Assembly (NCBI GenBank): GCA_033398695.1 | Contig: CM065805.1 | Location: 167,625,787-167,689,786, forward strand | Length of the DNA: 64,000 nucleotides | Reading direction: 5' to 3' | DNA from: Orobanche coerulescens | Taxonomy: Eukaryota > Streptophyta > Magnoliopsida > Lamiales > Orobanchaceae | Shown: positions 23 through 45,982 of the stretch, piece after piece | How the letters are laid out: each line of letters begins with the position of its first letter | How positions within the stretch are numbered: position 1 is the first letter of the stretch | Program-made: the position numbers and the translations under genes | The notes under the pieces: model-generated | Told to the model about the DNA's origin: nothing | Database searches by the model: none | What the model saw: only the letters and a program-made list of their open reading frames with translations

Positions 23-2446
23 TGTAATAGTATATCAGATACCTATCTTCATATTATCTACGTATTTAGATCGAGACGGGAGTATGATCATTTTCATTGT
101 GATTGATAGCCTTGTACTGGGAGTATCATCTTTGGATCGTGTTAGACTTGTTCACTTCCACATTCGTATGATATGTCGGATCATTCATCAGTCGTAGCGA
201 GGAATCGGAATTATCGGATTGATTCACCTTGGCCAGCATCGAGTTACGGCCGTAAGGTTCTGGGCTTCGGCCGTAAGTCAGCGGGTACGGCCGTAAGGCT
301 GGCCGGTTACGGCCGTAAGTGATCCAGCAGGCTACCCAGGCACTTTGGCCGAAGGTGAGTACGGCCGTAAGGAAGATGAGATACGGCCGTAAGTGGTGTT
401 CGTATATTTCGGGTGTTGTCGACCAAGGGTGACTTACGGCCGTAAGGGTTGCGGCATACGGCCGTAAGTCGAGGCAGGTACGGCCGTAAGACTTGGCCGG
501 ATACGGCCGTACGTTGCAGGAAGGATGTCTGGCCATTTTTGACGAAGGCGGGTTACGCCCGTAAGGTTGGCCGGATACGGCCGTATCATCCGAGTTACGG
601 CCGTAAGGTGTGCGGTACGGCCGTAAGCTGTCGGCGGGTGTTTTTGACGAAGGCGGGTTCGCCGTAACTCGAGAGCGATTCTGGCCGTAAGTCTCGGCGA
701 GCTTTCGGACGAAGCCGAGTTACGGCCGTATGAGTTGGCGATTACGGCCGTAAGGCCGTTGACTTGGAAAGTTACGGCCGTAAGAGGGCCGAGTTACGGC
801 CGTAACTTCCGGCGATTTATAGTTTGGCCGGGACACTTTTTCCTCATTTTCTACATATTCACTTCTTCTTCCATTTTGTCCGAGAGAGAGCTTGGGGAAA
901 GAGATTCTTCCTTCATCAAACACTTGTGTACTTGAGTTTCTTCATTTCCATTCGATCATATAGCTCGGATACTCGTTTTAACTCGTGTTCTTCGGATCGA
1001 AGTGGTTGGATCTTCTAGAGGTAATTTCTTCAACATCTTGGATTTCGATTTTGTGTTGAGATATGATGTTTTGGACGTTATAATCATGTTATATGAAGGG
1101 ATATGTGTATGATTATGAGTTTGTATAAGGATTCATTGGATTATTGAGGGATTATTCAAGAACACTTTGAATATCGAGTTGGATTTGGAGATTTTCGACT
1201 AATTGTTGTTATAATCACGTTTTTGGATATTCGTTGTGGATAATTAATCGTATTGAAGATGTTTTGTTGGTTTGAAACACTTCTTGTGGGATTTGGTATT
1301 GGTATATTGAGGTTTGATTGTAAACAATCGGAGTTTGGACGCAACGTGTTTGATTTAATGCCTCAATGGACTTGGTTTAGTCGTATCGACGTGTTGAGTT
1401 CGTTATATTCATGTTTGTACGTATATTAATCGGATTATTGGTTATTGAATTGTTCAAGGTTGTTCGAGCGACCGATATCTCAATTAGGACATTGTTCGTG
1501 GAAGGATAATTGTCACCGGTGTTGAGTAAGTTAATTCTTACTCGGTTAAAAGGATATTCATACCTTTTGTTGTTGATCATTCATAATCATAACTCATTCA
1601 TCATTGTATTAATCATATTAAAACTTGTTATTGTCAATTAATCACTTGATCATAAGGAGCAGCGGTTCCAATCTTTTCGTTGAGCTATCATTCATTTCAT
1701 TATTACTCTCATCTCGGTGAGTCATTCTTGGCCTTGTCTAATTATTATTCATTGATATTCATTATGGTCATTCTCGTTCATATGACCTTCGGGTTCATAT
1801 TGCGTGGCCGGGTGTGGTGTGGAATTTTTAGTCGGGCACACGATGGTTATTGTATTGGGTTCAGATACATTAGACCGTGCACACGGTCATATTGTCTCGT
1901 GAGACTAATTAGGTACACGGACGGATGTTGTACACTTGCACGAGAACATTACGGGCGTACTATGATACTCCTCTTCAGCGTAATTCATAATTAAGAATAT
2001 TTCATAACTTCGGTTAATTCATGATTGTGTAATTTCAACTCTTGAGGATTGTTGTTCATTTAATCGACCCATTTGGGATTTTGTTTTTCGTGTCGTGGCA
2101 AGGCAAACGCACGGGAATAGCGAGTTGATGTCGAGGAGTCCCGGTGATACTAGTAGGGGGCCCCGATCTTTCAGTTATTCATGTTATTGTCCTTTATTTT
2201 CCGCTGCAGACTTTCATTTGAATACTCCGTTTCATCCAGTGTGGTGTATTTTATCTTCATATAAAATACACTAGTATTCGGTATTGTCCTGGTGTGTTGT
2301 AACTAAACTCCTCATCGGAGTAATTATTGTTGTAATGTAGTTCGGTACTACATTTATCCTGTATAATTCATTTATTTTCAATTGCCTGGTGGGTCCCAGT
2401 TGGGGATCTACGGCACTGTATTATCCTCCTAGTTTGGGGTGTTACA
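23..2446 (+). mobile_element. Chromovirus-type LTR (probably a 3' LTR)
   Basis: This is a Ty3/gypsy LTR on the plus strand. It probably starts at TGTAATAG (23) and certainly ends at GGGGTGTTACA (2446), about 2.42 kb. Bases 1-22 (AAATGGAGGC within) look like the end of a polypurine tract, which would make this a 3' LTR whose internal region lies outside the window. The U3 holds the palindrome array at 240-815, followed by a TATA-like ATTTATAG. From about 1377 to 2446 it is clearly related to the inverted LTR at 43620-45982: the GAGCAGCGGTTCC stretch is shared near 1656, and so is the terminal block ending TAGTTTGGGGTGTTACA. It lies directly against RNaseH coding sequence of another element, so it looks inserted. 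The left boundary is inferred; the right one is secure. Confidence 0.75.
240..815 (+). promoter_or_regulatory. Array of about 20 CTTACGGCCGTAAG palindromes in U3
   Basis: About 20 copies of the perfect palindrome CTTACGGCCGTAAG, or one- to three-base variants, are scattered at irregular 20-50 bp spacing (for example near 244, 287, 307, 361, 382, 433, 453, 478, 595, 615, 741, 773 and 795). The bases between copies are not conserved. A TATA-like ATTTATAG begins at 815, immediately after the last copy. The placement suggests an enhancer of the LTR promoter; that role is an inference. Each palindrome contains two CpGs separated by two bases. Confidence 0.8.
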
Positions 2447-2986: not shown

Positions 2987-4955
2987 TATAATATCCGCAT
3001 TTTTCTTTCCTGGTATTTCATTTTTGGTGTATTTTTTATTTTCAGTGACTCGCTTTTAACCTTATTAACATTTCGAGAATATTTAATACTGGACTTTTTG
3101 TCATCCGGGCTTGTTTCAGACCTATTATACTCAATTCCATGTTTATTGCCTTTCCACCGCTTTTCATTCGATTCTAGTAATCGTTGTTCGGAACAGCCGT
3201 TTCGAGCTTGCCGCAAATCCAATTTATGTTATTATGCATGTTGTGAGATTCCATTTGATGTTTCGATCGTGTTTCGTGTGTTTCAGGTGTTTGAGCCGTT
3301 CGGTATCCTGATGCCTAGCGCGCGCTATTATTGTTGTATAGCGCACGCTAGTACCTCTTAGTAGCGCACGCTAGCGAGTCGGGCGCAGCAGTGGCAGTAA
3401 GATGTTTCTGCTCTCTGCTCTGTGGACGAGCAGCTTAGCGCACGTTAAGATTTTGTCTTCGCGCACGTTATGGTTTAGGCTTAGCGTGCGCTGGGTGTGC
3501 GGTAGCGCACGTTAATATGGCAGTCCAGAACTGGGCAGAATGTTTCTGGACTTGGCCTGGTGTCTAGGTAGCGCACGCTATAGCCCGATAGCACCCGCTA
3601 TCGAGGGGCTATTAGAGCATGCTATCCTCTGGTAGCGCACGCTAACGGGCCAGAACCGTAGGTTGTGGACTGGTTTTTAGCTGGGTAGCACACGCTAACT
3701 CTAATCGTTAGCGCACACTAAAACTCTCTGGCTATATAAACCAGAGAGTTGGCCCAGATTTGTCACTTTTTCATTTCTTTCTCTCTCTCCGGTTCTTGGT
3801 CGATTCTTGGGTGATATCCCGCGATTCAAAGTCCTGCAACTCCTAGCTAACATATTTCTTGAGTTCTTGGTGTATATTAACAACACCAACACTTATTCTT
3901 CATCCTTAATCCAAGGTAATCTCCTAGAACCCTATTTTGGGATATTTTGGGGTTTTTGAGTTTTTGTCCGATTCGTTCCGTATCGTTGATTAATCCATGA
4001 TGTATATGATTAATCTTTGTAGTATTCTTATTCTCTCTACGATGTCATGGTAAGTTTCGTGGTATTTGTGGAATCAAGAGGGTTCTGTTGCGATCCGTCC
4101 TCGTCTTTGTTTTGTACGAACTTACATGAATCATAGGTGGGGTTTCGAGTGTTTTCCTTTATTGTTATTCTTTTCGAATTGGTTGTGATGGTGTTTGACG
4201 AATTGTCTAGGTCCGATGTGTCCAATTTCTCGCAACCGCGATTGTTTCCTTCTGTCTTTTCGTCGTGATATCGAGGCAAGTACCCTTAATGAACTTACAT
4301 GCTTAACATGGTAGTATTGCATGAGTAACGTGTGTGTGTGTATGCTCAATACGGGTTAGATCTGATGAGATCTCGGTAGGGGTCCACAGAGGGGTGGATC
4401 GACGAGCTTTGCTTTTAACCACTACGGGTTAGATCAGACAGGGTCTCGGTAGGGGTCCACAGAGGGGTGGATCAACGGTTAATTGTGGTGCATTTTATAA
4501 ATGTGTTCTGGATTTTGGTGTTTCCGGAAATGTGTGTTTCAAATTATGTTTTCTTGTTATGAATTTTAGGTTATGTTCAGCCGGACGATCGAGCACTGGG
4601 GTAATACGACGATGTTGGCCAGGGTTGATGACGTGTGCAATTGAGTCTCTTTATTTCCGCTGTCCTTTTTAATGCGGATTGCTTTCTTTAAACTTGTGAA
4701 CTTATAGAACGTACTCGCGAGTACTTAGGTATTTCTACTGGGATTATGGTTTGTATTATTATATGTTATTTATGATTGTCACTGATGTTTGTTTTGCCGG
4801 TTATACCGGACATTTCATTTATTTTTGTTCTGGTGATGTGTGTTTTCTCGCTAACCAAGATAATTAGACGAGCGGTATTTCTTAATTAGCCTAGTGGGTA
4901 CCATGTAGGGGTCCACGACACTGTAATATTCCCTGAATATCTTGGGGGTGTTACA
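2987..4955 (+). mobile_element. 5' LTR of a second chromovirus
   Basis: The LTR starts at TATAATATCC (2987; the family start is TGTAATATCC, so TG has become TA) and ends GGGGGTGTTACA at 4955. The end is followed, after five bases, by an iMet-type primer site. Length is about 1.97 kb. It contains the palindrome array 3317-3725, a TATA box CTATATAAA at 3732-3740, a TG microsatellite at 4331-4342 and a 72-bp period direct repeat (4351-4400 and 4423-4473, with TCGGTAGGGGTCCACAGAGG shared). The last ~70 bp resemble the ends of the other chromovirus-type LTRs here. It interrupts the integrase remnant on its left. Its 3' LTR is not in the window. Confidence 0.85.
3317..3725 (+). promoter_or_regulatory. 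Array of about 13 TAGCGCACGCTA near-palindromes
   Basis: About 13 copies of TAGCGCACGCTA or close variants (TAGCGCGCGCTA at 3317, TAGCGCACGTTA, TAGCACCCGCTA, TAGCACACGCTA) lie in U3 at irregular spacing. The last copy (3708) ends about a dozen bases before the TATA box CTATATAAA at 3732. The outer five bases on each side are inverted repeats (TAGCG / CGCTA) and the central two bases vary. A regulatory role is inferred from this placement. Confidence 0.8.
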
Positions 4956-4960
4956 GAAAA

Positions 4961-4980
4961 TGGTATCGGAGCACTAGGTT
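4961..4980 (+). other. Primer-binding site, iMet-tRNA type
   Basis: TGGTATCGGAGC begins five bases after the LTR end. It is one base from TGGTATCAGAGC, which is complementary to the 3' end of plant initiator Met-tRNA and is the usual primer site of chromoviruses. It shows that the element reads on the plus strand. Confidence 0.85.
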
Positions 4981-5006
4981 TATGGATACCTAGGCTTGTC
5001 GGTTAA

Positions 5007-6351
5007 TTGGGTCTAGTTGTGTTTTGTTTTGCACATCGTCACCCCGCTGCCATTATCTCGGTACTTCCAGTGCTCGTAAGTTTTCCTTACTCGATTTTTT
5101 GCTTCCTTGTATCGTACTTCCGATTCTTGAACTGTGACTGTTTTCTTCTCGTACTTATCTTCGAGTTGCTTTTGCTACCTCTTATCTCCAGTATAGATGC
5201 TGGAAAAGGTCTTGGACGCAGTTGGGGACGTGGGGCAGCCAGTGAGGCGGCCACGTCACACGATTCTAGGGCTGGTAGTACTGATGGTCATCAGATTCAT
5301 AGTGCTACTCAAGAGGGCGCAACCGGTGGTGGCGCCGACCTGGGTGTTGCAGCTGTGATGCAACAAATGGTGAACTAAATGGCTGCGATAGCTCAGGTGG
5401 TTCAGAACCCGACTCTGGCCCATGCTACTCGGGGCATAGCAGATCGTTGGATTCAGGATATCATCAAGATGCATCCTCCTCAGTTTTCGGGGGCTTCTGA
5501 CCCGATTGGTTGGGAGGGGTGGATCAAGGAGATATCCAAGGTCTTTGTTGCCACCAACTGTCCCGAGGATTGCAAGGTCCCTATTGCCCAGTACTTTCTC
5601 ACTGGGGACGCTACTGACTGGTGGGAGGCTGTTGAGCCTAAGCACCATGTTGCTTCATGGGTCGAGTTCAAAGACCTGATGGAGACCGAATATTGCCCGT
5701 GGCCAGTTAAACAGGCTCGAGTCCATGCTTTTTATGAAGCTCAGCCTCGGGATATTCCTGTTTCTCAAGCTATTGTTGATTACAACCGGGAGTTGGGTTT
5801 CGTGAAGTCCCAAGTTAGAGAGTAGAGCGACAAGATTTTCCACTTTTCAGACGGATGAAACTAAAGATTCGTGACTACATGTCTGGGCTCGCCTGCACCA
5901 CCTTGAAGGATTACTTGCATACGATATGTCTTTGACGGCCAGTGTGGCGGCTCGTGAGAGCAAGAAATAGAAGTCCGTCGGAAATTTTTTGGGCCACAAG
6001 GGTGGAGGTCAGCAGAAATATCAGTCTGCTAACTTTTCCGCTGGTGGTGGTCCAACTCGTTCTGCTGGGGGTTTCTGTGGGGCTTCCAGTACTCCTTCCC
6101 GTGATGTGAAGTGTTTTAACTATGGCCGACCGGGCCACATCAGTCGAAATTGTCTAGGTCCTTTGCTGACATGTAATCGGTGTGGCCAGCCGGGCCACAA
6201 GGCTGCTTTCTGTGCTGATAGAGAGAGAACTCTTGGTGCCCAGAGTTCCTTCCCAGCGCCTAGGGAACCAAGTGTGAACCAATGGTCGTTTGCTTCTCAG
6301 TCTCTGCCGAGTGCCAGTCGAGGGAGAGGTCGGGGTCAGCCCGCTAGAGGG
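5007..6351 (+). pseudogene. gag: Broken chromovirus gag with two zinc knuckles
   Basis: The capsid-like region is at 5379-5825 (HPPQFSGASDPIGWEGWI and the WWEAV motif of plant retrotransposon gag). It is in frame with the upstream stretch 5007-5375, from which it is parted by one TAA at 5376, probably a former glutamine codon. A TAG at 5823 and a frame change follow. The nucleocapsid part at 5989-6351 has two knuckles. The first reads CFNYGRPGHISRNC and has lost its second cysteine (Tyr instead). The second, CNRCGQPGHKAAFC, is a complete C-x2-C-x4-H-x4-C. The gag is cut by the hAT insertion at 6352 and resumes at 7263. Gag forms the particle that packages the element RNA; this copy cannot make it. 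Confidence 0.85.
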
Positions 6352-7254
6352 TAGACCTGGCAAAAGTGGCCCAAGCCCATGGGCCGGCCCAGCCCGTTCA
6401 TTAAAAATTGGGCTTTGGGCTTTAGTTTTTTAGCCCAAAAAAATCTAGGCATTTTTGGCCCGCCCGTATTTTGGCCCAGCCCAAAAAGGCCCGGCCCACG
6501 GGTGCCCAACAGCCCGTAAGAAACTTATATTATAATTATAATTAAATGTATTTTAATTAGTTTATTGGTTAGGGTTACTTATTATATCGCATTCGCCGCT
6601 TTGCTGTCTTCTGCTCAACAACAAGAGTTGACAATCACTTTCTTTCAAGTTACACTTCTCACTCACTTCTCTGCAAGTTTGCAACACCTCTGAACAACAA
6701 AAATCTTTCTTTCACTTCTTAGTTCTCAATCTTTCATTCACCTTGAGTCCGACTCCGTCTGTCCGTGACCTCCATCGGTATCGACCATTCTGTCAACCGT
6801 GTGCTTCTCAGTTATGAACTTCTCCCTTTTTTGCAATCGCCAGCGAACCAGCACCGGTCCTCTCCTCCTCGTCGTCGCGGCCAAAGCAGTGGTACAGGTA
6901 CTGGTCGTGTTTTTGTTTGTTTTTAGTTTGTGATGAGCAGTTCCTCTCCATCGTAATTTCTACCTTTTGTTCGTGTGTTTGATTTTGTTCCGTCATTTCT
7001 TTCGACTTTCAGTAGCTTCTTTTTTTGTTCCTGGATTTTATTTTTAGTTCAAAAAACTCTAATTATCTTGCAGTATAAACTTCCAGTGCAGGGGTCGTTT
7101 TGGCCCATAGGCTGGGCTAGGCCCACTCGGTATGGGCCATGGGCCTCAATATTTAGGCCCAAAAAATCCTGGGCCTTTTTGGCCCAACCCAAAATTAGCC
7201 CGCCCGTTGGCAGCCCAGCCCATTTGGGCTGGCCCAGCCCGTTTGCCAGGTCTA
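6352..7254. mobile_element. Non-autonomous hAT transposon, 903 bp
   Basis: The ends are perfect 13-bp inverted repeats, TAGACCTGGCAAA, followed by subterminal regions rich in GGCCC/GGGCC on both sides (about 160 bp each, roughly inverted). The element is flanked by a perfect 8-bp target duplication CTAGAGGG (6344-6351 and 7255-7262), diagnostic of hAT. The inner ~550 bp holds a CT-rich leader-like sequence but no transposase, so it would depend on an enzyme made elsewhere. It has inserted between the gag zinc knuckles and the protease of the chromovirus. The precise duplication suggests a fairly recent insertion. Confidence 0.95.
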
Positions 7255-7262
7255 CTAGAGGG

Positions 7263-7658
7263 GGAGCTTCCAGTGTCAGCTCTACCCACCAGCGTGTTTA
7301 TGAGATGAGGAGGGTCGATGATACAGCCGCCACCATGGCCACAGGTACCGTTCATATTCAGTCTCATCCTGTCAGTGTGCTTTTTGATTCGGGTGCTTCG
7401 CATTCATTCATCTCTATGGAGTGTGTGCGCCGTTTGAGTCTCGACCGTTTGATGCCTTGTGAGCCTCTCATCGTTAAGCTTCCTAGCGGTGATAGGATCG
7501 TTGGTGATCAGGAGGTCCGAGACTGTTCTGTGTTTATTTGTGAGATGGCTTGGCTCTCTAATCTTATTGTTGTACGTATTGAGGGTGAGGATTTGATTCT
7601 CGGAGACGATTGGCTCGAGCGGCATGGTGCAATCATGAACTACCGCACGAGAATCATC
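7263..7658 (+). pseudogene. Chromovirus protease fragment
   Basis: The open frame continues the chromovirus polyprotein after the hAT insertion. It encodes an aspartic protease with the catalytic motif LFDSGASHSFIS (Asp near 7386) and, about 80 residues on, LGDDWLERHGA, a typical end of the retropepsin fold in this group. The enzyme would cut the Gag-Pol polyprotein. Reading stops because a copia LTR begins at 7659; the reverse transcriptase and integrase of this element are not seen in the window. Confidence 0.88.
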
Positions 7659-9498
7659 TGTTAGGAATATATGCCCTCGAATGCCACTCAGAGGATGAGA
7701 GAGTGAGAGCAATTGTATTTTAATTATGAGTAATATATTTAATAAGGCAATTATTATTTCTATATTATTGCATATCACTGGCATTGTGATTTGGTATATA
7801 GAATAATAGTCCTTGCATTTGAGAGTGAACATTCTACTCCTTATGGAGATAAGGAGATAGGCACTAGAAGTGTTTAGAGCTAGAATGCTTAACTAGTTCG
7901 CAAGTCGATAAAACTTAACAGGACATTAAGTTTTAATGAGACTTGTATAACTGATGCTAGGACGTGTGCACGTCTTGATAGCATAGTTATAAGTATATTG
8001 GTGGGACCAGTATACTCGAACACGACTCATACTCGATTCAGTCACACGGTATTCACTCTCGGAGAGTCGATGACGAATCGAAAGGTTGTGATAGTATACG
8101 TGGACCTTTGACTTGAGGGTTCAGTAGAAGATGTGCCTGTGACGATTAGTTTGTCATTAGAGTAGTTAGATTCATTTGCTTAATTGCTGAGTCTACCTCG
8201 AAGTGCGGACTATACGGGCAGGTAGCAGTCTTTACTATACGCCAAGAAAGGATTCTATCTCTTGTTAGTGAGCAGGCGAATGTCCTATACGGTTAATGGC
8301 GAATAAGATCATAAGTCTTTGGCCAAAGCATTCTGATATAGTCGTATTAGATACACTATTAATCAGTCGGTCTTGATTTGCATTAACACATGTATAAAGT
8401 CTAGTCAACAGTAGGGTCTAACTTTACCGTGACTCAAAGATTTGACCGGGACATCTGATGAAGGGTCTATACGTATGTGGTATTCATGACATAATGGTTC
8501 TGGAATGATTCGTTCATTCGTTCTCAGTCGGGGTTTACAGTGCGGTCCGCTAGGCTGGCTAAGTGCTGCCCGCACTCATTGATTCCTCCCAATGTCGGCT
8601 GAGACGAACCTACGGAGTCGCGCAACAGGATCATTGACGGATAAATATGAATTAATAATCTCTCTTATAAGATTAGATATTAGTGATTTATTGGATAAAT
8701 CTAATAGCGGTCTTATGAATTGTAAGTAGGTTACTGGGTGATTACTTTAATTCATAAATTATATTTCTTAGAGAAATGTATATTTGTGTTTGATATAACT
8801 AATTAATTGGATTAATTAATTAGTATAACACATTGGAAATAAAACGGATTCAATTGACGGACATCCGATTCACGAGGGATTCGTTTGACGAACATCCAAT
8901 ACACGAGCCGAATTAACTCTACCCGTTTCTTGGAAGATTCCTATAAGTCCCCCCCTCCTCTCTACTTTGTCTCTCTCTCATTATATTATATACTTTTGGG
9001 GTCATGTGAGGTGTAGAGATGCTTTTAAAAGCATCTTCTACATGTGAGGCTTGCATAATTGTGAAAAGAAAGTCTTTTCAATCATAAAGTCTCCTTCTTC
9101 CTTCCCCAAGTGTATTTTCGTTTTTTAGAGAGCTTCAAGAGTGAGAAAAATTATCTACAGCATATTCTTGATCTTAGAGACAAGTTATTAGTAGAAAAGA
9201 TCGAGAGAAAAAATTCCTACAAGCTTCCCTAGCCGCATTCTTAGAGAAAGGAAGTTTGCTGATTTTTCCGTCAAGTTCCGGCGTGTGAAGTAGAGACGTC
9301 GTGCTTTCGGTGTTTGGAACGAAGGGCTCTTCATCATCATCATCATCATCATCATACGAAGATTTTCAGAGACATCAAAGGTATGGGACTTTGATTCCTT
9401 GATCTTCGTATTTCTTTTCGTATATACGTTACTTGATCGATCCTCTTAGGGATTCCGTTTATTCTTCCGCTGCGTTTATTTTCTGTGGAATCCCAACA
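7659..9498 (+). mobile_element. 5' LTR of a Ty1/copia element
   Basis: The LTR begins TGTTAGGAATATATGCC and ends TGGAATCCCAACA, about 1.84 kb, with matching TGTT...AACA ends. It is followed at once by GTGGTATAGGAGCGAGG, a diverged iMet-type primer site (9499-9515). A CAT microsatellite of about eight units lies at 9331-9355. The LTR interrupts the chromovirus protease. The matching 3' LTR is not in the window. Confidence 0.85.
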
Positions 9499-11182
9499 GT
9501 GGTATAGGAGCGAGGTCAAATATATCGTATATACAATCATATTTGCATTTGGAATGTTATTTGATGATGTTTATGATTTAGAATCATAATAGATATAATC
9601 GAAGAAATTTAATCGTTCGTAGTAAGTCAAGTTTTGACTATTTTATGTGAATTATAAATCTGAAAAATTTGATTTTTGTTGATTTATAAGTTCTTCATGA
9701 AGTTAAGAAACTTTTTCTTTTTGTAAGCGAGTCGAAAAAATGAGAAAAATGGGGGTTAAATACGAATACCGCGAAGACGCAGATTGCTGCAGTGACTTCT
9801 GGGCTGGCATGCGGCCGGCCGAGAGTGACTCGGTAGGCTACTGTAGCAGCTCGGCCAGCCTGCCGGGCAGTGGCCGAGAGTGACTCGGTCCGGGCGGTTC
9901 TCGGGTTTTCGGCCCGATTTTGAATCGGGCCGTGGGCTGGGCCTGATACCGGATTTTCTGGGACTCCATTTTTGTGTTTATATTTCGTTGTAATAATTTA
10001 CAGAATTTAAATTGGATTTAATTGGATTTAATAAAATATTTGGAATATTTTTTTTATTAAGGGAAATTATTAGACGAGAATATTGTTTTGGCCGGATTAC
10101 TTTGAACGGATTAAAATGACGATTATAAATATTAATTTGATTAATATTGTAGAAATTAAATAGAATTGGATTAATATATTAATTGATTATCATTTATCGT
10201 TACATGTTGTATGGAATGCCTTATGTGATGGTGATATAGCTCGTGGACTTAGTTGTTGATTTGTTCGATTCGATATGGTTGTAAAGGCCGTTTTGAGCCT
10301 ATTTATTTTTACTAGAAAATATGTATAATAGGACGTATTGTTCAATGATGTAATTATTCATATGGCTATGACGAAGACCAAAGACGACCGACTAGAAGAC
10401 GAAGAATCAATACTGTATTTTTCCTTTCTTTATTTGGCTTGGCCCAATACTTAGGAAAAAGTCCATGAGCTATATGTTGGTAGTAACTAGGTTGCTATTT
10501 ATTGTTTTTCATTTTGAATGATTGACAAACCACAAACCGCGCTTATAAACGGATTAATGTGCAAAGTGTAACATATAATCGCGTTAATACTCCCACTTAC
10601 AAACACTAAGTTATAAAGGTTACGAGGTTTCCTACCCTCCATCAAACTCATGGAAAATTGAAATCTAAACCGAATATTATTCTTCCAGTATGTCGGGTAA
10701 TATTTTTGGGTAAAGTTGATAAATTCCTAGAGTGCATTAGATGCCTTTGGTTGTGACAAATCAAACCCCTATAAACCGTATGGGTTGCCGGGTAAGATTC
10801 AATTGTCAGACTAATAGGAGTTGACGGTTTAAACTTAGATAGTTCAGCGAGCCATAGAAGCCGAATGGGTTGAGGGCAAGTGAACTAGGGGTAAAATAAG
10901 ATCGAATCATCCATTAGATGGGTTGGTATTAGACACCACTTTATAAAGAATAATAGAATATAAACCGTATGGGTTGCCCTCTATTAAACTTTGTAAAGAA
11001 ATCGATCACCACTATGAAGTCACCCAAGACTTCCGGATTTAACATGGGAGTGTGTAAATATCGATAAAATAGTGGGAGCCGAGTTATGAATAAAGAAAGT
11101 CCTTAAATTCTTTACTCGGATCATAATTAAACAAACACTAACGAATCTCAAATTATTCTCTGCAGTTAACAAAACTCTTAAT
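9499..11182 (+). other. Untranslated leader of the copia element
   Basis: There are 1.7 kb between the primer site and gag with no supported ORF. It contains a GC-rich patch (9770-9960) with repeated GGCCGAGAGTGACTCGGT, an AT-rich stretch (9970-10200), and two copies of AAACCGTATGGGTTGCC (near 10776 and 10963) with a shorter variant near 10863. Long leaders are common in plant copia elements; no function is visible here. Confidence 0.6.
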
Positions 11183-12805
11183 ATGACAATGAACCCACTC
11201 GTTATACTACTTGAAAAGAACGTCCTGACTGGTCCGAACTATGTGGACTGGCTTCGGAACTTGAGGATTGTCCTAACTATGGAAATGCTGGGATACGTCT
11301 TGGAGGCGGACATCCCAGCGGCTCCTACAAGAACCCGAGCCAATCAGGAAGATGTCGATGCCCATGAGAAATGGGTAAAAGAAGACATAAGAGTGTGAGG
11401 GTACATGTTAGGCTCAATGACCAATGAGCTTCAACGTGCCCATGAAAAGATGACATCTTCACGAGCCATCTTAGCGCACCTTGCTGAGCTCTATGGAGAG
11501 CATAGCCGAACTGCTAGATATGAGATATCAAAGCAATTATTCGGCACCAGGATGAAGGAAGGAGAGAGGGTTGGGGACCATGTCCTCAAGATGATCTCGA
11601 TGATTGAGAGATTGGAAGCTCTTGATTTTCAGATGCATGCATCTCTCCAAACTGACCTTATCCTGCAGTCACTTCCTGACTCCTTTTCACAATTTGTCAT
11701 GAACTTCAACTGCAATGAGATTGCATGTAACTTAGCTTGGCTAATGAACAAATTGACGACTGCCCATTCTCAGATGAAGACAAAGGGAAAGGGATCTGCA
11801 CTTGTGATTTCTTCTGGGACTTGGAAGTCCAAGAATAAGAAGAAAAAGAACAAGAAGCAGTTAGGTCCAATAGCCAAGATTGACAAGGGAAAGGGCAAGG
11901 CCCCAATGGTTCAAAAGAGCAAGGGGGCCAAGAAAATGGATGTATGCCTCAACTGCGGTGAGCTAGGCCACTGGAAGAGGTACTGTCCAAAGCTTGACCG
12001 TAATGCGCCTTCAGGTACAGAACTACTAGTTTTAGAAACAAATTGTTCTGTAACTGTATATTCTACTTCTTGGATACTTGATTCCGGTGCGAGTTCTCAC
12101 ATTTGTACAATGAATTAGGATCTGGAACGAAGTAGGAAGCTGGATTCAGGGGAGGTGATGGTCACCGTCGGAAGTGGGCATAGTGTTGAGGCTTCTGATA
12201 TCGGATCCCTTATGTTGGATTTAGAATCTGGTTTTATTCTTACTTTAGATGATGTACTTGTTTTGCCCAAGGGGCACAAGAATATTGTATCAATTCCGGT
12301 CATGGACCGAAAGGGATTTCACTTCTTTATTGGAGATGGGTCCTCTCGTATTTATTTCAGAAATAAATTGGTTGGTACTGCTACATTATTAAATGGTTTG
12401 TACCATTTAAATTTAAAGAATAAAACAACTGTGAACACTATAACTAGGAAGCGTGGTAGGGATTAAACGAACCAAGAACTTAAGTGGCATCTTAGACCTG
12501 GTCATATCGGTCAGACCAAGGTTCATAAAATGGAGAAAGATGGGCTTACAGGTCCATTGGGATCAGATCCCTATCCAACTTGTGAATCTTTCCTTCAAGG
12601 CAAAATGACTAAGTTACCCTTCGCAGGGACTTTTGAAAGAGCTACTGAAAAACTTGGATTTATCCATACCGACGTCTGTGGCCCTTTTGAAGTGGCACGA
12701 GACGGCTTTCAATATTTCATTACATTCACTGATGACCATACCAGGTATGGATTCGTGTACTTAATGAAACATAAGTCTGAAGCTTTTGATAAATTCAAGG
12801 TCTAG
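11183..12805 (+). pseudogene. Copia gag-protease-integrase, one frame with stops
   Basis: One reading frame runs through the whole stretch, broken only by in-frame stops at 11396 (TGA), 12116 (TAG) and 12464 (TAA). It starts with a copia gag (LTGPNYVDWLRNLRIVL) and reaches a zinc knuckle CLNCGELGHWKRYC near 11946-11987. Protease follows with WILDSGASSHIC near 12075, then the pre-integrase region KWHLRPGHIG, and finally the start of the integrase core (GFIHTDVCGPF, first catalytic Asp). Homology ends after SEAFDKFK at about 12800, where the Tat-like composite is joined. Reverse transcriptase and RNaseH are absent. All three stops could be C-to-T changes of CGA, CAG or CAA codons. Confidence 0.9.
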
Positions 12806-13762
12806 TGTCAGAGGGAACATTCGGCACCGGGTCGCGTCCGATGCCCCACACCCGGTCATGTAGATGTTGAACTTCATTAGGTGCGTCTGGGGGTCCGATC
12901 GCCCCTCGTACATGGGTGTTTGCGGGGGAGCGATCTGTCTTTGCCGCACGGGGCGAGCTCGATGTCGATCGCGAGCGGCTCGCTCGGCTCGGCGATTGTC
13001 TTCATGGCGCCTGCCCCGGATTGCAGGAGCGCCTTCACGTCGTCGAGCTGACGTTGCAATGCGGCAATCGCCGTGGCTCGGCTGCTTGCTGATCGGCTTT
13101 GGGAGCGGGGGCCGAGGCGATCGTGTGCGATCTCGGACTCGGCTGCCGCCCGACCTCGGGAATATGGCGAACGGGAGCCAGACGGCTGGGTTGCCTTCTG
13201 GGAGCCGGGTAGGCCGAGCTCCTGGTGACGGACTCAAACTCCGTCGTCTCGAAGTCAGGCCGGGCGCCCGGTCTCAGTCGGAGTCACCGCCCGAGCGATC
13301 GAGACGAGACGTGCCCCAGTGCCGAGCGCCTCTTCTTGCGGGCGAGAGCCTCACAGCGATCGCTCGGCGATAATGCCTTGTGCTTCGCTTTGACTTCGGC
13401 GGGAGGCCGAGGGGTGATAGCGAGGAGGTGCGTCGAGCACTCCGTTGCTCTGAAGGCGGCTATGGCCTCTTCGATCTGCTCATTAGTCCAGGCCGATCGG
13501 CGAGAGGCTCGGGCCGCCGTCCGGGGCGGATCGAGCGTCTCGATCGCGGCCGCCTTCCACCATCGGTGCGGCTCGGACTAGGGCGGAACAGGGGTCCGCC
13601 GGGTGGTCGGCGGCTTTCTTCGACGCGGAGGCTAAGACATGATTTGAAGGATTTCTTTGAAGTGCGGTGAGTGTCACTTCAAGTATTTGCCAGAACAGTG
13701 AGTGTTCTTGGGACGGTAGGAATAAAAATTTGAGGTTGGATCCCCCTTCTTCTAGCGCCAAT
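12800..13762 (-). pseudogene. gag: Inverted Tat-like gag leader fragment
   Basis: Read on the minus strand from the primer site (CTAGCGCCAAT region at 13751-13762), this stretch is a diverged copy of 16548-17575, including the KKAADxPA segment and the FNIYMTGCGASDATRCRMFP segment. It is broken by frameshifts and ends at about 12800 against the copia integrase, where GTCTAGTGTC of gag meets copia sequence. A 60-bp segment present in the plus-strand copy (near 16980-17040) is missing here. It is a relic and not translatable. Confidence 0.8.
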
Positions 13763-14729
13763 TGTTGCCCAAAATATTTATCCGAAGATTAATCTGCTGG
13801 AAGACGGACAACAAACAACAATTGCGGGAGCACTTCCGAGAGAAGATAAATAATACAAGATTTGCGGGTTTGTTAGGCCGGGCTTGAATGCTCTCGCGAG
13901 ATGATATTAATACAAATATTCGTGGATACAAGTATTAATGAGAGAAATCTAAATACAATGAGTGTAAAAGACTCGTTAATCCGGCTCTTGAGCGAAGCTC
14001 GGTGTTCTTCGTCCCGCCGATCGTGCATGCGATGAGAGGCCGGAGAAGTAAGACCGAATGAAAGCATTGCCAAGAGTTGGAGATAGCCAAGTGCAATGTG
14101 TTTTGCTTGTGATGTATCTTTGAAATGCGAGAATGCCGAGAGAGTGCGAAGAATTTCGGTCCTTGGACAAGTCTTTGGGAGCCTTGTATATATAGGGCGG
14201 CCAAGGTCTGTCCTCTGGCGGGCGATCGCCTTCCGGCCATTATAATAATCTGCCGATCGTCTGTGCCAATATTATAATGGGGCGATCACCAGGCCGTCGG
14301 ACAAAAGTCGAGAAGAGGTGGCGCCACTGGGTGGTCAATGAGGAGCCGGCACGCGTCCGAGTCGGCCAACATGCGGCCTACCGGCTTTCGGCGAGAATCA
14401 ATGGTCACATGCGGCCCTACTTGCGGCTTTCGCGGCTTGTCGGTGGTGGAGAGATTCACGCCAGTGTGGTCAATGACCCGAGATTCGCGGATCTTGTCTC
14501 GGCCCTTGCACGTGGTGCCAGTCTTAAGGTTCGGCCTTTGCCGACTGGATGGCCATCGGTGCTGATCGACATGAGGCGGTCGTCTCTAGCTGGTCATCAG
14601 AGATCGCCATCGGCCAGTTGCTGAGGGTCGGCATTTGGTCGGTCACCAAGGGTTGGTCGGCAAGTGCCGAGAGACGGTCGGTCTCCAAGGGTCGGTCGGC
14701 AAGTGCCGAGAGATGATCATCTCCAGTGT
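13763..14729 (-). mobile_element. 5'-truncated Tat-like LTR, minus strand
   Basis: On the minus strand this matches the last ~970 bp of the LTR at 18789-20066: the CTGGTCATCAGAGATCGCC block near 14590, a TATA region near 14190 (TATATATAGG on the plus strand), and the end TATTTTGGGCAACA at 13763. The first ~290 bp of the LTR are missing. At 14729 it passes, after GATGATCATCTCCAG, straight into inverted RT sequence. The adjoining primer site sits at 13744-13762. Confidence 0.82.
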
Positions 14730-16117
14730 CTTTTTCTGTGTGGAAAGATGTGTGTTTTATGTCTTCCTCCGCCATTGGGATTTGATGATATCCGGCGAAG
14801 GCATCCATAAACGACATCATTTCGCAACCTGCCGTGCTATCGACCAGGTGATCGATATGAGGCATCGGGAAGTGATCTTTTGGACATGCCGCGTTGAGGT
14901 CGGTGAAGTCAATGCATAATCTCCGAGGCGATTGGCTTTTTGGCGAGCACCGCGTTAGCGACCTTGTGGTTAAATGCGTGGCTACTCCGATCAATTTGTT
15001 GTTGAGTAACTTCTGGACTTCTATGTCGAGCGCCGCGTATTTCTCGGCACCGAACTTCCTACGCTTCTGGTGAACAGGCTTCATTGCCCGGTCGATCTTC
15101 AGATAATGGCAAGCGTGTTCGGGACTTATGCCAACCATATCTTGATGCGACCAGGCAAAGACTCCGATGTTCCTACGTAGCAAGTTGATCAGATCCCCCT
15201 TTAATTCGTGGTCGATGCTTGCGCCGATCTGTACTTCCCGTTCTGGATGATCCGGATCCATCGTAATACTTTCCAACTCTTCGACAGCCACGGTCGCCTC
15301 TCGTTTGGTACGATCTCCGGACTCGGTCCTTAGATCGGTGTCGAGACTTGGCTCGAAACCGATCCTTGGCTCGATGTCGTCCGTCAATTGATGAGAGATG
15401 GCGTCCCCTGAGTCGGGTTGGAATGAAATGTTAGGCTCGTCGATCTCCATGGGTTGATCGTCGGTCGCTTCAATGTTACATATGGTACGGGAAGTATTGA
15501 AAGAAGTAACAACATAGGAGTAATTCAAACATCTCTTTGCCATTAGTTGATCTCCTTTTACAGTACCGACCGTCCCATCGGCAGTGGGGAATTTGATACA
15601 GTAAAAGAAAGATGAGGCGACCGCCTCAAAGGTTTCTAAAAAGGGGCGACCTAGGAACCCATTATAGATGCTGGGCCTATCTATGATTACAAAGCTTAGG
15701 TTCGTAGTAATCCTAACCTTGGGATCATAAAAGCATACTAGCTCAACGGAGAGCTTGATCCTCCCGTAGGCTTGGACTGTGTTGTCGCCGAACCCTTGGA
15801 GCACGGTGTCGAAAGGCTTGATGAATTTGATTAAGTTGCCGAGTTGGTCTAGGGCGGATTTGAATATGATGTTGCAAAAACTCCCATTGTCGACCAACAC
15901 GCGATCGACCGTCTTCCCAAGGATGCAAGCGGAGATTACTAGTGCATCCTCTTTGGGACATTGCACTCCCTCCCTGTCCTTGTTGGAAAAGGTGATGAGC
16001 GCGTCTCTTGAGATGGTCGGCTCCGGAGGTACTACTACATGGACTTCGGCGAAAGCCCTCAGCTCGGCTTTTCGCTTTCTGTTTGACAGGGTGGAAACCG
16101 GGGAAAGGCCCCCGAGG
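14730..16117 (-). pseudogene. Tat-like protease and truncated reverse transcriptase
   Basis: On the minus strand an open frame encodes a Tat-type protease, with RVLVDNGSFCNIIF (DNG in place of DTG/DSG, as is usual in this clade) and GFLGRPFLETF. A linker and the reverse transcriptase front half follow: VHQKRRKFGAEKYAALDIEV, CIDFTDLNAACPKDHFP and SFMDAFAGYHQIPMAEED. The frame then runs into LTR sequence at 14729, before the YxDD active site, so no enzyme can be made. At the other end (16117) the frame continues backwards into the LTR end, which supplies an artificial N-terminus (MPRVGDSQVQ). The junction lies in a shared GGCTCCCA word, which suggests joining at microhomology. Confidence 0.88.
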
Positions 16118-16547
16118 CTCCCACCACTTGTCCAAGGACCGAAATTCTTCTGCACTCTCTGGCATTCTCGCATTTCAGCATACATCACAAGCAAAACACA
16201 TTGCACTTGGCTATCTCCAACTCTTGGCAACAGCTTTCATTTGGTCTTACTTCTCCCGGCCTCTCTCATCAGACAGACGATCGGCGGGGACGAAGAACAC
16301 CGAGCTTCGCTCAAGAGCCGGATTAACAGAGTCTTTTTACACTCATTGTATTTAGTTTTCTCTCATTAATACTTGTATCCAGGAATATTTGTATTAATAT
16401 CATCTCGCGAGAGCATTCAAGCCCGGGCCTAACAAACCCAGCAAATCTTGTATTATTTATCTTCTTTCGGAAGTGCTCCCGCAATTGTTGTTTGTTGTCC
16501 GTCTTCCAGCAGTATTAATCTTCGGATAAATATTTTGGGCAACAACA
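16118..16547 (+). mobile_element. Partial Tat-like LTR (R-U5 end), plus strand
   Basis: This matches the last ~430 bp of the LTR at 18789-20066 almost base for base, ending TATTTTGGGCAACAACA. It is followed by TTGGCGCTAGAAGAAGG (16549-16565), the primer site that marks the start of the plus-strand internal region. Its upstream two thirds are replaced by the inverted protease-RT block. Confidence 0.85.
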
Positions 16548-17716
16548 ATTGGCGCTAGAAGAAGGGGGATCCAACCCTCAAATTTTTATACCTACCGTCC
16601 CGAAGAACACTCACTGTTCTCGGGGCAGATACTTGAAGTGACACTCACTGCACTTCAAAGAAATCCTTCAGAAATCATGTCTTCCGCCTCCGCGTCGAAG
16701 AAAGCCGCTGACCAGCCAGCCAGACCCCCTGTTCCGTCCCAGTCCGAGCCGCAGCCGATGGTGGAAGGCAGCCGCCGCGGTCAGAGACGCTCGATCCCGT
16801 CCCGGGACGGCGGCCCGAGCCTCTCGCTCGATCAGTTCCGGACCAATGAGCAAATCGAAGAGGCCATAGCCGCCCTTCAGGAGCGACAGAGTGCTCTCGA
16901 CGCACCTCCTGCTATCACCCCCTCGGCCGCCTGCCGGAAGTCAAAGCGGAAGCACAAGGCATTACTGGCCGAGCAATCGCCAGGTAGAAGGGCGTTAAGC
17001 TTCTTTACTTGTAAGTAGATTTCAAAATTCACTATAGTTGGAACCTCTCGCCCGCAAGAAGAGGCGCTCGGCAGCCGGGGCACGTCTGTCTTCGATCGCC
17101 TGGGCAGTGACCCGACCTGGCGACCGGGGCAGTCCGGCCCCAGCTACGAGACGACGGAGTTTGAGTCCGTCACCAGGAGCTCGGCCTACCCGGCTCCCAG
17201 AAGGCAACCGGCCCGCTCCCGCTCGCCATATTCCCGAGGTCGGCAGCAGCGGAGTCCGGAGATCGGTACACGATCGCCTCGGCCCCCGCTCCCAAAGCCG
17301 ATCAGCAAGCAGCCGAGCCACAGCGATTGCCGCATTGCAACGTCAGCTCGACGACGTGAAGGCGCTCCTGCAATCCGGCAGCGCCATGAAGACGATCGCC
17401 GAGCCGAGCGAGCCGCCGCGATCGACATCGAGCTCGCCCCCGTGCGGACAGATCGCTCCCGCAAACACCCATGTACGAGGGGCGATCGGACCCCGACGCA
17501 CCTAAGGAAGTTCAACATCTACATGACCGGGTGTGGGGCATCGGACGCGACCCGGTGCCGAATGTTCCCTCGACACTAGACGACCTCGCCCACCGGTGGT
17601 ACACCTCATTGCCACCTCGGTCCATTGGCTCCTTTAACGAGTGGCGCACGTCTTCACGAACACTTCGCCACTCGCAGTCGTCGCCTGAAGGTCGCCGCAT
17701 GATGCGAATCAAGTAG
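16548..17716 (+). pseudogene. gag: Tat-like gag, degenerate
   Basis: After the primer site, open stretches in shifting frames encode a gag leader (MSSASASKKAADQPA near 16678 and a QIEEAIAALQERQSAL helix near 16855), an Arg/Ser/Pro-rich middle (17038-17460) and the capsid-type core. The core is seen as CGASDATRC (reading near 17530) and HRWYTSLPPRSIGSFNEW near 17590-17645, the most conserved part of plant retrotransposon gag. Several frameshifts and a stop after 17000 make it non-functional. Only the plus-strand copy keeps the WYTSLPP block. Confidence 0.8.
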
Positions 17717-22060: not shown

Positions 22061-22069
22061 CGACTATGA

Positions 22070-28140: not shown

Positions 28141-28557
28141 TTTATAAACTGTGCATCTCGTTACGTACGTTAAGTTCCAACATTAACGTACGTAAGGACT
28201 CTAACGTACGCTATATGTCCTATATAGCGTACGTAATCGCCATCCAGGGTAACTGTACTATTTTGCACCTTGCGTTACGTACGTAATACCATCACCATAG
28301 CGTACGTAATGTAGCAGTTGACTTGCTACAGTATCAACCCATATTACGTACGTAATATGCCATGCATAGCGTACGTAATGCCGAAGTTGACTCGCCTGTC
28401 CACATCCTGCGCCGAAAGCAGCCAACACCGGGTCCCACCTGCCGACCACGGCTCGATCCTATCTGAATCCCTTCTTAACGTACGTAATGTACATTCCTTA
28501 ACGTACGTTAATTCTGCTTGCTTACGTACGTAAGTCTCCTTACATAGCGTACGTAAT
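28141..28557 (-). promoter_or_regulatory. Array of TTACGTACGTAA palindromes and TATA word
   Basis: About 12 copies of TTACGTACGTAA, TAACGTACGTTA or AGCGTACGTAA-type words lie at 28161-28557. On the minus strand they lie just upstream of TTTATAAA (28141-28148). The same architecture is seen in the other chromovirus-type LTRs here with different words. The copies in LTR B (50541-50937) and in the duplicate (62681-63068) are partly shortened to ACGTCGT. Confidence 0.82.
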
Positions 28558-42529: not shown

Positions 42530-42530
42530 T

Positions 42531-43619: not shown

Positions 43620-45982
43620 TGTAACACCCCAAACTAGGCGGATATTACAGTGCCGTGGACCCCCGACTGGGACCCACCAGGCGAATGAAGATGAATGAAT
43701 TACATAGGTAAATGTAGTACCGAACCACATTACAACATCAATTACTCCGATGAGGAGTTTTATACAACACACCCAGGATAAAAATAGAATACATGTGTAT
43801 TTTATGTGACGATAAAATACACAACACTGAATGAAATGAGCATTCAAACGGAATGTATGCAGCGGAATAAATAAAGGAAACATAAATGACTGAATAAATG
43901 ATCAACAGCATCGGGGCCCCTACTAGTATCACTGACTCCTCGCCACCGTGCTCTCCCGTGCTTTAGCCTTGCCATGACTAAAAACAATATCCCCGACGGG
44001 CCGCCATACGTAACAACAATCCTCAAGGGTTGAAAATACACAATCATGATATATCCGAAATTATGAATTATTCAGCCGAAACATACGCAATCAAACATGC
44101 TATATGAATCGACTAATCAAGACGGCTCAAAGGAATGGCGCCACACTACGTCCGGGATGGAAATGTGTCCGTGCACAAGCCACCAACGATCAAACACGCG
44201 TGGTCTTGTACCTAATCGCCTCACGAGCAATCGACTGTGCACACCCAATGTGAGGCCACCAACCAACACACGACTATAATGTGCCCGACATGAAAATCCT
44301 ACACATACCAACGCACGCCAAGATGACCCTAATGCCACAATATGACAAAAGTGACAATGAAAATGAATAATGACTCACCAAGATTGAATGATGGTGAAAT
44401 GAATGATAGCTCAATGAAATGATCGGAACCGCTGCTCCTTATGACTGAGGTGATTAATTGACAATGACGAGTTTTGATACGATTAATACAATGATGAATG
44501 AGTTATGATTATGAATGAACAACGACAAAAGGAATGAATATCCTTTTAACCGAGTAAGAATTAACTTACTCAATACCGATGATGAATGTCCGTCCACGAA
44601 CAACGTCCTAAATGAAATATCGGTCGCTCGAACAACCTTGAATAACACAATTACCAATAATCCGATCATTACGCAAATCAAAAACGATCATAATCGACTC
44701 AAACATCGACACAACAATATCCGAGCTCGAATGAATCGAAACCAACTCCAAGATGAGTATTTCAAACCATCAAAACACTTTCAAGGATATCAATAATCCA
44801 TTAGGAATCCATAACTCATGATTACAACAACATCAATCGGAAAATCCCCAATTAACGAAGTCAACCCCAAGGGTTCTTGAAATAATTCGAAAATAACCAT
44901 TAAATCCGTAGGAATATGTTTATACAAGTTAGATAATCCATAACTAACATATTCCAATGATAATCCAAGCTTACGAAGAAATCGGAAGGAAAACCCCAAA
45001 AATCAAATTCTAGATCCAAGAGATTAATACCTTTGATTCGATGTGATGAAGATGATGAAATAATGATCAATCGAAAGATGAGCTTGAAGATGATGATTGA
45101 TGATTACACCTCGAAGAATCCTCTCGAATCGCTCGAAATCGCCCAAAACTACCGAAGGAATGAAATGAGATGAAAATGACGAACTCGACTAAACTGCCCA
45201 ATTTATACTCGGTCCGAGGTTAGCGTGCGCTAGCCTTGTGCATAGCGTGCGCTAACGAGTAATTTGGGTAGTCCGGTACCTTGTCCGAACACGGTAGCGC
45301 GCGCTACGTACCTATTTGTAGCGTGCGCTACGGCCATACTACTAGCGTGCGCTAATATCCATTGTTAGTGTGCGCTAGCGAAATATTTGACGCCCAGTAC
45401 TGGAGTCCAGAAAACTGTCTGACCTCTGATCTGACCCCGATAGCGTGCACTACAACCATTGTTTAGCGTGCGCTAATATATCGGTTGCGTACGCTAACAA
45501 CAATGCATAGCGTGCGCTATGAAATAATCGATGCGATCCGGTAGCCCGGACTCAACGATCCGTCCCTAGCGCGCTACACCTCATATTAGCGTGCGCTACT
45601 TCAACCCACTAGCGCGCTACTTACCATTCGTAGCGTGCGCTACTTATAACTCACTGCGGTCGGTACCTTACGGCTGTGGTAACCTTAGCGTGCGCTAAGG
45701 CTGAGTGGTAGCGTGCGCTATTTATACCCAATTAGCATACGCTAAAAGGAGTATGTAGCGTGCGCTACTCCTCACGCACAGCTCGCAACGAAAATGACAA
45801 TGATGATAAACATGGCACGAAACTCCAATCAGATTAGTGATGAATGACGATTGATACACGATACAATTACTCTGAATGATGAATACCATGACTGAATATG
45901 AGTGACAAATGATCAATAATGAATGAAATTACTGAGTATCAATTACTGAATGATAATTACTGAATTACAACTGGGTATTACA
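43620..45982 (-). mobile_element. 3' LTR of the deleted chromovirus
   Basis: 2363 bp. The minus strand begins TGTAATACCCAGTTG and ends CTAGTTTGGGGTGTTACA. U3 has a palindrome array (45221-45767) followed by GAGTATAAAT (45201-45210), the TATA word. Its R-U5 part is homologous to the LTR at 23-2446. A poly-C/G run and TTTTAAGG (45983-46000) form the polypurine tract. Confidence 0.9.
45201..45767 (-). promoter_or_regulatory. Array of about 18 TAGCGTGCGCTA near-palindromes
   Basis: Copies of TAGCGTGCGCTA and variants lie in U3 (45221, 45243, 45297, 45320, 45345, 45366, 45441, 45461, 45506, 45583, 45630, 45684, 45708, 45732, 45756 and others), just upstream (minus strand) of the TATA word. Two copies near 45568 and 45610 are shortened to TAGCGCGCTA, losing exactly the two central bases. 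A further truncated piece of the array lies at 48958-49042. Confidence 0.82.

What the first reader, a model, noticed from the sequence alone, without database searches (positions are those of the whole stretch)
240..45767. One palindrome grammar, four different words, in U3 of chromovirus-type LTRs
Four LTR types carry a cluster of 12-20 short palindromes just upstream of the TATA box: TTACGGCCGTAA (240-815), TAGCGCACGCTA (3317-3725), TTACGTACGTAA (28161-28557) and TAGCGTGCGCTA (45221-45767). Sequence, orientation and spacing differ, but all fit TWRCG-NN-CGYWA: two inverted five-base half-sites two bases apart, each with a CpG. Changes in one half-site are mirrored in the other. This suggests selection for a dimeric, CpG-sensitive DNA-binding factor, or a cruciform/methylation function, with the exact word free to change per family. 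I know of no described system that matches this; that is not proof of novelty.
Basis: partly seen in the sequence, partly recalled or inferred. Interest (0 to 1): 0.88.

Follow-up and report, generated by a model that had tools for sequence, protein, structure and literature searches.

The report
Swappable palindrome cassettes in plant retrotransposons
An abundant group of plant jumping genes carries, just before its start signal for transcription, rows of short mirror-image DNA words that look like docking sites for a paired protein, and close relatives can have the whole row replaced by one spelled differently, which resembles something known from another group of plant jumping genes but adds an unusual turnover.

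Summary
TWRCG-NN-CGYWA occurs 61 times in the window (shuffled mean 0.88) and at 2,615,881 sites in the 3.65-Gb source genome, against 46,903 for the reversed control. In 264 kb (20 systematically spaced 10-kb samples plus the window) the spacer is 2 in 265 cases, 1 in 17, 0 in 6, and 0-8 for other spacers. Neighbouring boxes mostly start 23 bp apart, and 264 of 265 boxes lie in clusters. Arrays lie in U3 of chromovirus-like Ty3/gypsy LTRs.

Corrections: words B and D are reverse complements, so three words, not four. Half-site mirroring holds between families but not box by box (185 mirrored; within-array shuffle 180.7). Some related LTRs carry palindromes outside the grammar. Four LTRs share their 5' end (72-83%) and post-TATA DNA (69-84%), yet in 5 of 6 pairs their array cassettes align no better than shuffles.

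Best reading: U3 enhancer cassettes of multimerised dimer-binding sites, like Sirevirus repeated-motif boxes (Bousios 2010) but in another superfamily and with whole-cassette turnover. No binding factor is identified. New variant of a known kind.

The parts
244..805 (+). Array A, word TTACG-GC-CGTAA (8 exact, 7 one-off; 16 TACGGCCGTA cores)
817..822 (+). TATA-like element after array A; LTR continues to TGTTACA at 2440-2446
3316..3725 (+). Array B, word TAGCG-CA-CGCTA; TATATAA at about 3733
4949..4972 (+). End of LTR B (TGTTACA) and a primer-binding site resembling initiator-Met tRNA (1 mismatch; PBS letters recalled)
5379..7664 (+). Pieces of gag (PF03732), CCHC knuckle (PF00098) and protease (PF08284) downstream of LTR B
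28161..28557 (-). Array C, mixed half-sites TTACG/TAACG/TAGCG with TA centre; TATA on minus strand at about 28150-28141; LTR start 28919
45221..45767 (-). Array D, word TAGCG-CA-CGCTA read towards the promoter; TATAAAT on minus strand at about 45207-45201; LTR start 45982
46020..46145 (-). Chromodomain-like piece of the D element (PF00385, E 3.9e-4, below the Pfam cut-off)
46146..46511 (-). Integrase-terminal SH3_Tf2-1 domain (E 1.7e-28) of the D element
47556..48503 (-). Ty3/gypsy-type reverse transcriptase / RNase H of the D element
48960..49041 (-). Truncated D-type array (4 boxes), LTR start 49270
50539..50926 (-). C-type array copy (9 exact boxes), LTR start 51291
61102..61183 (-). Truncated D-type array (4 boxes), LTR start 61413
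62703..62894 (-). C-type array copy (4 exact boxes, 7 with a 1-bp central deletion, some of them beyond these coordinates)

Best explanation
The arrays are U3 enhancer cassettes of chromovirus-like Ty3/gypsy retrotransposons. Each box is a 12-bp inverted pair of half-sites TWRCG, two bases apart, bound by a dimeric, sequence-specific DNA-binding protein (inferred). Boxes at 23-bp pitch next to TATA give dense binding that drives LTR transcription, and the CpGs make binding methylation-sensitive (inferred). The half-sites TAGCG, TTACG and TAACG are probably interchangeable for one factor or family, because one array mixes them (inferred). Related LTRs have the whole cassette replaced by an array of another CpG palindrome while keeping the LTR ends and post-TATA DNA. 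The replacement is shown in the sample; recombination as its cause, and evasion of small-RNA silencing as its driver, are inferred.
For: Spacer exactly 2 (265 against 0-17 for the other spacers from 0 to 20) and 23-bp pitch (adjacent starts: 81 at 23, 22 at 24, 10 at 22, 8 at 21). Near arrays, 49 of 82 one-off variants are CpG transitions and only 3 break W/R/Y/W at positions 2, 3, 10, 11. Boxes outlast linkers: D family box CpG 92.8% against linker 70-73%; C family (5 copies) 97.9% against 65-72%. TAGCGTACGCAA sits at one site in 5 of 5 D-type copies, so boxes are not simply homogenised. Oriented centre CA 90, TG 4 over 19 LTRs; TATA-like sequence within 10-19 bp after the last box in 14 of 19 (permissive pattern, no shuffle control). 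Mixed half-sites. Cassettes within the shuffled score range between alignable flanks in 5 of 6 same-backbone pairs.
Against: No binding, expression or methylation data, and no candidate factor. Several word classes on one backbone cannot all suit one factor of TWRCG specificity. The two A-type copies show no clear excess conservation of boxes (box 84-86%, linkers 79-87%), and among the young copies C, F, H boxes (91-99%) are no better kept than linkers (92-96%) because box centres carry 1-bp deletions. Non-orthologous boxes are already 90% alike against 93.6% for orthologous ones, so box-anchored alignments may flatter box identity. The sixth same-backbone pair (L018, L028) scores 18 against a shuffle maximum of 15, and the L012-L010 cassettes 31 against 16. 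By word count against shuffles the array of L024 is marginal (5 against a maximum of 4) and that of L016-4804 absent (4 against 4). The TTGACY core is only 1.8-fold enriched in cassettes. Arrays also fold strongly as RNA.
Confidence: 0.55

Rival explanations
1. The arrays matter as RNA: the U3 of the 3' LTR folds into hairpins that feed small RNAs (silencing hot spots), as proposed for maize Sirevirus palindromes.
For: Arrays fold better than shuffles: z -4.4 (D), -6.5 (C), -9.0 (A), -3.5 (B). Maize Sirevirus palindromes are small-RNA hot spots (PMC5311732; PMC10760457; passages). Fast cassette turnover fits escape from small RNAs.
Against: Any cluster of inverted repeats gives such z-scores. 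The commonest word has an unpaired oriented centre (CA 90, TG 4), asymmetric neighbours point the same way (77 against 5), mixed half-sites break stems, and mirroring is no better than a within-array shuffle. Exact spacer and W/R limits are not needed for hairpins.
Confidence: 0.2
2. The boxes are targets of a sequence-specific anti-silencing protein (VANC-like) that removes methylation, encoded by transposons or host.
For: [quoted passage not shown] RdDM and VANC share noncoding targets (PMC10398659, passages). The boxes are oriented, CpG-bearing and turn over as cassettes.
Against: No VANC-like gene was searched for. VANC targets lie in tandem repeats, whereas TRF finds only short stretches here. 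The VANC21 motif lacks CpG and palindromy.
Confidence: 0.12
3. Cruciform or methylation-signal structures whose letters matter only through pairing and CpG content.
For: The word classes seen are short CpG-bearing palindromes.
Against: No box-by-box covariation, mixed half-sites, oriented centre, W/R enforced.
Confidence: 0.06
4. Neutral by-product: words spread by slippage or conversion inside U3 and are carried along by element success.
For: 2.6 million copies could follow from element copy number; TRF sees 22-23-bp arrays in parts; boxes and linkers decay alike among C, F, H and in the A family.
Against: In older D and C comparisons boxes outlast linkers, and a position-specific variant persists; spacer and W/R positions are strict.
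Confidence: 0.07

Closest known systems
Sirevirus LTR repeated-motif (RM) boxes (Bousios et al. 2010, PMC2829016; abstract and passages read)
   Same: Many copies of a short palindrome per LTR, word specific to each family, CpG-rich cluster shortly upstream of a conserved TATA box, flanking sequence divergent.
   Different: Sireviruses are Ty1/copia; these are Ty3/gypsy with chromodomain-like integrase ends. The Sirevirus core is CGG-CCG in 12 of 13 listed words; TAGCG-CA-CGCTA and TTACG-TA-CGTAA lack it (TTACGGCCGTAA contains it). Strict 2-bp spacer, 23-bp pitch and whole-cassette replacement were not in the passages read.
Palindromes of maize Sirevirus LTRs as small-RNA hot spots (Bousios et al. 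2016; paper not held; known through passages)
   Same: Rapidly evolving palindrome clusters in the cis-regulatory part of the LTR.
   Different: Different superfamily; small RNAs not measured here; oriented centres argue against a purely structural role.
VANC anti-silencing targets of VANDAL transposons (PMC5735166, passages)
   Same: Short motifs arrayed in one orientation in noncoding regions, turning over between related elements.
   Different: DNA transposons, tandem repeats, motif YAGTATTAY without CpG or palindromy; known TE-encoded binder.
CACTA/En-Spm subterminal TNPA sites (recalled, not read)
   Same: Arrays of CpG-bearing short sites bound by a protein, methylation-sensitive.
   Different: DNA transposon ends, no LTR.

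Membership tests
Ty3/gypsy chromovirus | Ty3/gypsy reverse transcriptase / RNase H | tested here: met
   D element PF17917 4.9e-32, PF17919 1.5e-28, PF00078 1.8e-20
Ty3/gypsy chromovirus | Chromodomain at the integrase C-terminus | tested here: inconclusive
   PF00385 E 3.9e-4, 5.3e-5, 4.9e-4 in D, L017, L027, all below the Pfam cut-off of 25.1 bits; SH3_Tf2-1 adjacent in D at 1.7e-28. A C-type array in L019 follows a like region
Ty3/gypsy chromovirus, Tekay/Del clade | Position in a reverse-transcriptase tree | not tested
   The clade name is recalled; no tree was built
Sirevirus RM boxes | Host element is a Ty1/copia Sirevirus | tested here: not met
   Coding pieces next to arrays B, D and L019 are Ty3/gypsy type; array A was placed by LTR likeness only
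Sirevirus RM boxes | High-copy palindromes upstream of a TATA box in the LTR | tested here: met
   19 LTRs with 3-17 boxes; a TATA-like sequence within 110 bp of the last box in 18 of 19 (permissive pattern, no shuffle control)
Sirevirus RM boxes | Core CGG-CCG signature | tested here: not met
   Only TTACGGCCGTAA has it; TAGCGCACGCTA and TTACGTACGTAA do not
Sirevirus RM boxes | Multiple polypurine tracts and poly-C integrase signal | not tested
   none
VANC anti-silencing targets | Cognate VANC protein that binds the motif | not tested
   No search for such a gene was made
VANC anti-silencing targets | Motifs in one orientation | tested here: met
   CA 90, TG 4 towards TATA
VANC anti-silencing targets | Motifs lie in tandem repeats of longer units | tested here: not met
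   TRF finds only short 22-23-bp stretches in the window arrays

The most novel reading that the evidence does not exclude
Plant chromoviruses use plug-in U3 cassettes: each is an array of one dimeric, methylation-sensitive binding word, and related elements repeatedly replace the whole cassette by recombination, which changes both the activating factor and the small-RNA target at one stroke. It would be a modular arms race in the regulatory DNA of one of the commonest plant genome components.
Probability: 0.3. Interest if true: 0.85.

Novelty: new variant of a known kind. Interest (0 to 1): 0.62.

Why it matters
Millions of copies of one strict dimer-type motif in a genome are a large reservoir of possible regulatory sites and a natural experiment on binding specificity. 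If cassettes really swap between relatives, one can ask directly whether retrotransposons change their switch to escape small-RNA silencing. It also suggests that the Sirevirus-type palindrome promoter is not confined to Ty1/copia.

Tried and rejected
Rejected: four independent words (B and D are reverse complements). Rejected: box-by-box mirror covariation. Tried: the motif words in the paper library (33 papers hold one of five words, 20 listed, none of those 20 titles is about LTRs). Tried: palindromes in chromovirus, gypsy or Tekay LTRs (8, 2, 15 of 21 and 8 papers listed): apart from the Sirevirus papers none looked like such a report by title and start of abstract; PMC6911290 (passages) concerns insertion targets. 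Considered from memory only, no call: NAC, BZR, SBP and other plant factor sites; none seemed to fit all half-sites. The TTGACY core is only weakly enriched. Tried: pairs of TAGCGCACGCTA 9-13 bases apart in viral contigs, 0 matches. Tried: naming the species through RT relatives and Panax papers (listing only); not settled. Error found and corrected: searches used L010 in the wrong orientation (guessed from a TATA pattern); one search repeats the C-family conservation with the orientation given by its LTR start. L017_394 fell out of the alignment through my trimming (6 informative rows of 7). Dropped by my filter: LTR starts with fewer than 3 boxes or a first box beyond 400 bp, among them L017-9489, L025-4219 and window 63432 (first box at 538-551). 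Not answered by the busy server: genome counts for TARCGNNCGYTA, TTRCGNNCGYAA and GTGCCGCGGCAC.
Full report
OBSERVATION. The window holds 61 matches to TWRCGNNCGYWA, in the four reported blocks and four partial ones; dinucleotide shuffles give a mean of 0.88 per window, maximum 4 of 50. In the 3,646,015,169-base source genome there are 2,615,881 sites (the pattern is its own reverse complement) against 46,903 for the pattern read backwards. I took twenty 10-kb stretches at 20 and 90 Mb of contigs C1-C10 and pooled them with the window: 264 kb, 265 boxes. The sample alone has 1,020 boxes per Mb, about 1.4 times the genome mean. Inverted TWRCG-Nk-CGYWA gives 265 at k=2, 17 at k=1, 6 at k=0, and 0-8 at each k from 3 to 20. 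Adjacent boxes start 23 bp apart in 81 cases, 24 in 22, 22 in 10, 21 in 8. In a word-blind list of 5-2-5 inverted 12-mers of the 200-kb sample, the five commonest other than TA repeats are these words; GTGCCGCGGCAC (7) comes next. There are 32 clusters, one of them a single box; 264 of 265 boxes are in clusters of three or more.

THREE WORDS, ORIENTED. TAGCGCACGCTA and TAGCGTGCGCTA are reverse complements. Using only the LTR start TGTAATAYC to set direction, and keeping LTRs with at least 3 boxes and a first box within 400 bp, 19 LTRs (181 boxes) have centres CA 90, TA 61, CG 11, GC 11, TG 4, CC 2, GA 1, AA 1. The asymmetric centre thus points one way relative to transcription. The first box lies 155-365 bp from the LTR start. 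A TATA-like sequence (permissive pattern, no shuffle control) follows the last box within 110 bp in 18 of 19 and within 10-19 bp in 14. Three LTR-start matches with a first box at 538-551 bp were dropped by the filter.

HALF-SITES. 185 of 265 boxes have identical half-sites against 114.6 in a global shuffle, but a within-array shuffle gives 180.7 and 13% of 2,000 shuffles reach 185. Genome-wide the R position is G/G in 1,404,097, A/A in 769,995, hence mixed in 441,789 by subtraction; independence would give about 1.23 million (my arithmetic). The association therefore comes from families having their own word, not from paired change in single boxes. The matching genome test for the W position did not complete. 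C-type arrays mix TAGCG, TTACG and TAACG, and one cluster (L023 7631) has TAACG/TTACG in 9 of 10 boxes.

CONSTRAINT. Among 82 one-off variants near arrays, 49 are CpG transitions, as expected from deamination of methylated CpG; 3 break the W, R, Y or W rule at positions 2, 3, 10 and 11. In five D-type copies box CpGs are 92.8% identical, other fixed sites 93.5%, centres 87.0%, linkers 70-73%. In five C-type copies the values are 97.9%, 88.4%, 81.0% and 65-72%; adding the more distant L019 gives 92.8%, 82.8%, 80.8% and 57-64%. Pairs with linkers at 49-60% keep boxes at 77-94%; pairs with L019, linkers 32-46%, keep boxes at 68-83%. TAGCGTACGCAA sits at the same place in 5 of 5 D-type copies. Against this: the two A-type copies show no clear excess; among the young copies C, F and H boxes (91-99%) are no better kept than linkers (92-96%), owing to 1-bp deletions at box centres; and non-orthologous boxes are 90% alike against 93.6% for orthologous ones, so box-anchored alignment inflates box identity to some degree.

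ELEMENTS. The D element has Ty3/gypsy-type RT/RNase H, SH3_Tf2-1 and a chromodomain-like end below the Pfam cut-off. Array B is followed by an LTR end, a primer-binding site, gag, CCHC and protease pieces. A C-type array in L019 follows an SH3/chromo-like region 75-80% identical to that of D elements; its own Pfam SH3 match is partial and below the cut-off. Array A was placed by LTR likeness. Named RT relatives include Tanacetum, Solanum, Hibiscus, Helianthus and Cucumis (120 listed of 8,000 scored). The species is not identified.

CASSETTE TURNOVER. Other CpG palindromes occur in related LTRs: CCGTGTCG-NN-CGACACGG in L028-3857 and GTGCCGCGGCAC in L023+706 (both above shuffles by commonest 7-mer, 8 against 5 and 10 against 5), and decayed GTGCCGCGGCAC-like words in L024-4367 (5 against 4) and L016-4804 (4 against 4, not above). 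L020 (TAGCG word), L018+8169 (TTACGGCCGTAA), L028-3857 and L024-4367 share the first 120 nt (72-83%) and post-TATA DNA (69-84% over 635-1469 nt). In all 6 pairs these flanks score far above shuffles, while the cassettes score within the shuffled range in 5 of 6; L018 against L028 scores 18 against a maximum of 15. L028 matches L018 from just after TATA (82% over 810 nt) and L020 further down (90% over 1,071 nt), itself a mosaic sign; such likeness beside unalignable cassettes is hard to explain by slow drift. L010 shares its first 342 nt with L012 (80%, TAGCG word) but its array region with window LTR 28919 (72%, C words); the L012-L010 cassette segments as I cut them still score 31 against a shuffle maximum of 16. 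The exchange mechanism is inferred.

MECHANISM. Strict spacer, strict W/R letters, mixed half-sites, one-way centre and TATA-side position are what a protein dimer site would leave; hairpins or cruciforms would need mirrored arms and no fixed direction. Linkers also hold GTCCAGAA (10 seen, 0.17 expected), GTCCAGTA (9, 0.23) and GTTGACTT (10, 0.32); these were picked as top 8-mers, partly from copies of one family, and the TTGACY core as such is only 1.8-fold enriched (23 in cassettes, 2.0 against 1.13 per kb). I read the cassette as a composite enhancer. The factor is unknown.

KNOWN KINDS. Sirevirus repeated-motif boxes have the same layout (passages). The 2016 maize paper was not held; passages report that its palindromes are small-RNA hot spots. 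VANC targets (passages) are the closest arms-race parallel. In the held library (5.39 million open papers) my searches for such arrays in chromovirus, gypsy or Tekay LTRs listed no report that I recognised by title or start of abstract; subscription papers are not covered.

Noticed in passing
50539-50990 and 62640-63130 against 28161-28557: C-type copies F and H carry the same 1-bp deletion at the box centre (CGTACG to CGACG) in 3 and 7 boxes while the CpGs stay intact: either a hot spot of change or a base-calling artefact at methylated CpG.
   Followed up: partly
48924-51858 and 61066-64000: A 2.9-kb mosaic (97.7% identical) joins a truncated D-type LTR start with four boxes to a C-type LTR, in two places; the second runs to the window end.
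   Followed up: partly
22053-24663: About 15 copies of a 174-bp satellite-like repeat.
   Followed up: no
54779-56957: Two blocks of a 50-bp tandem repeat, 6.5 and 35 copies.
   Followed up: no
L025:9520-9810: Array of AACAGCGG-like words in both orientations beside a CACTACAAAA-like end (recalled CACTA signature), probably a CACTA transposon subterminal region.
   Followed up: no
L022:1925-2100, 5583-5730, 9705-9885: GTGCCGCGGC-type boxes in pairs 18-23 bp apart near a gypsy-type gag gene (PF03732), possibly a gag-only element.
   Followed up: partly
12800-14727 against 16115-20066: Several inverted and direct duplicated blocks, 90-98% identical, around an open frame of 570 aa.
   Followed up: no
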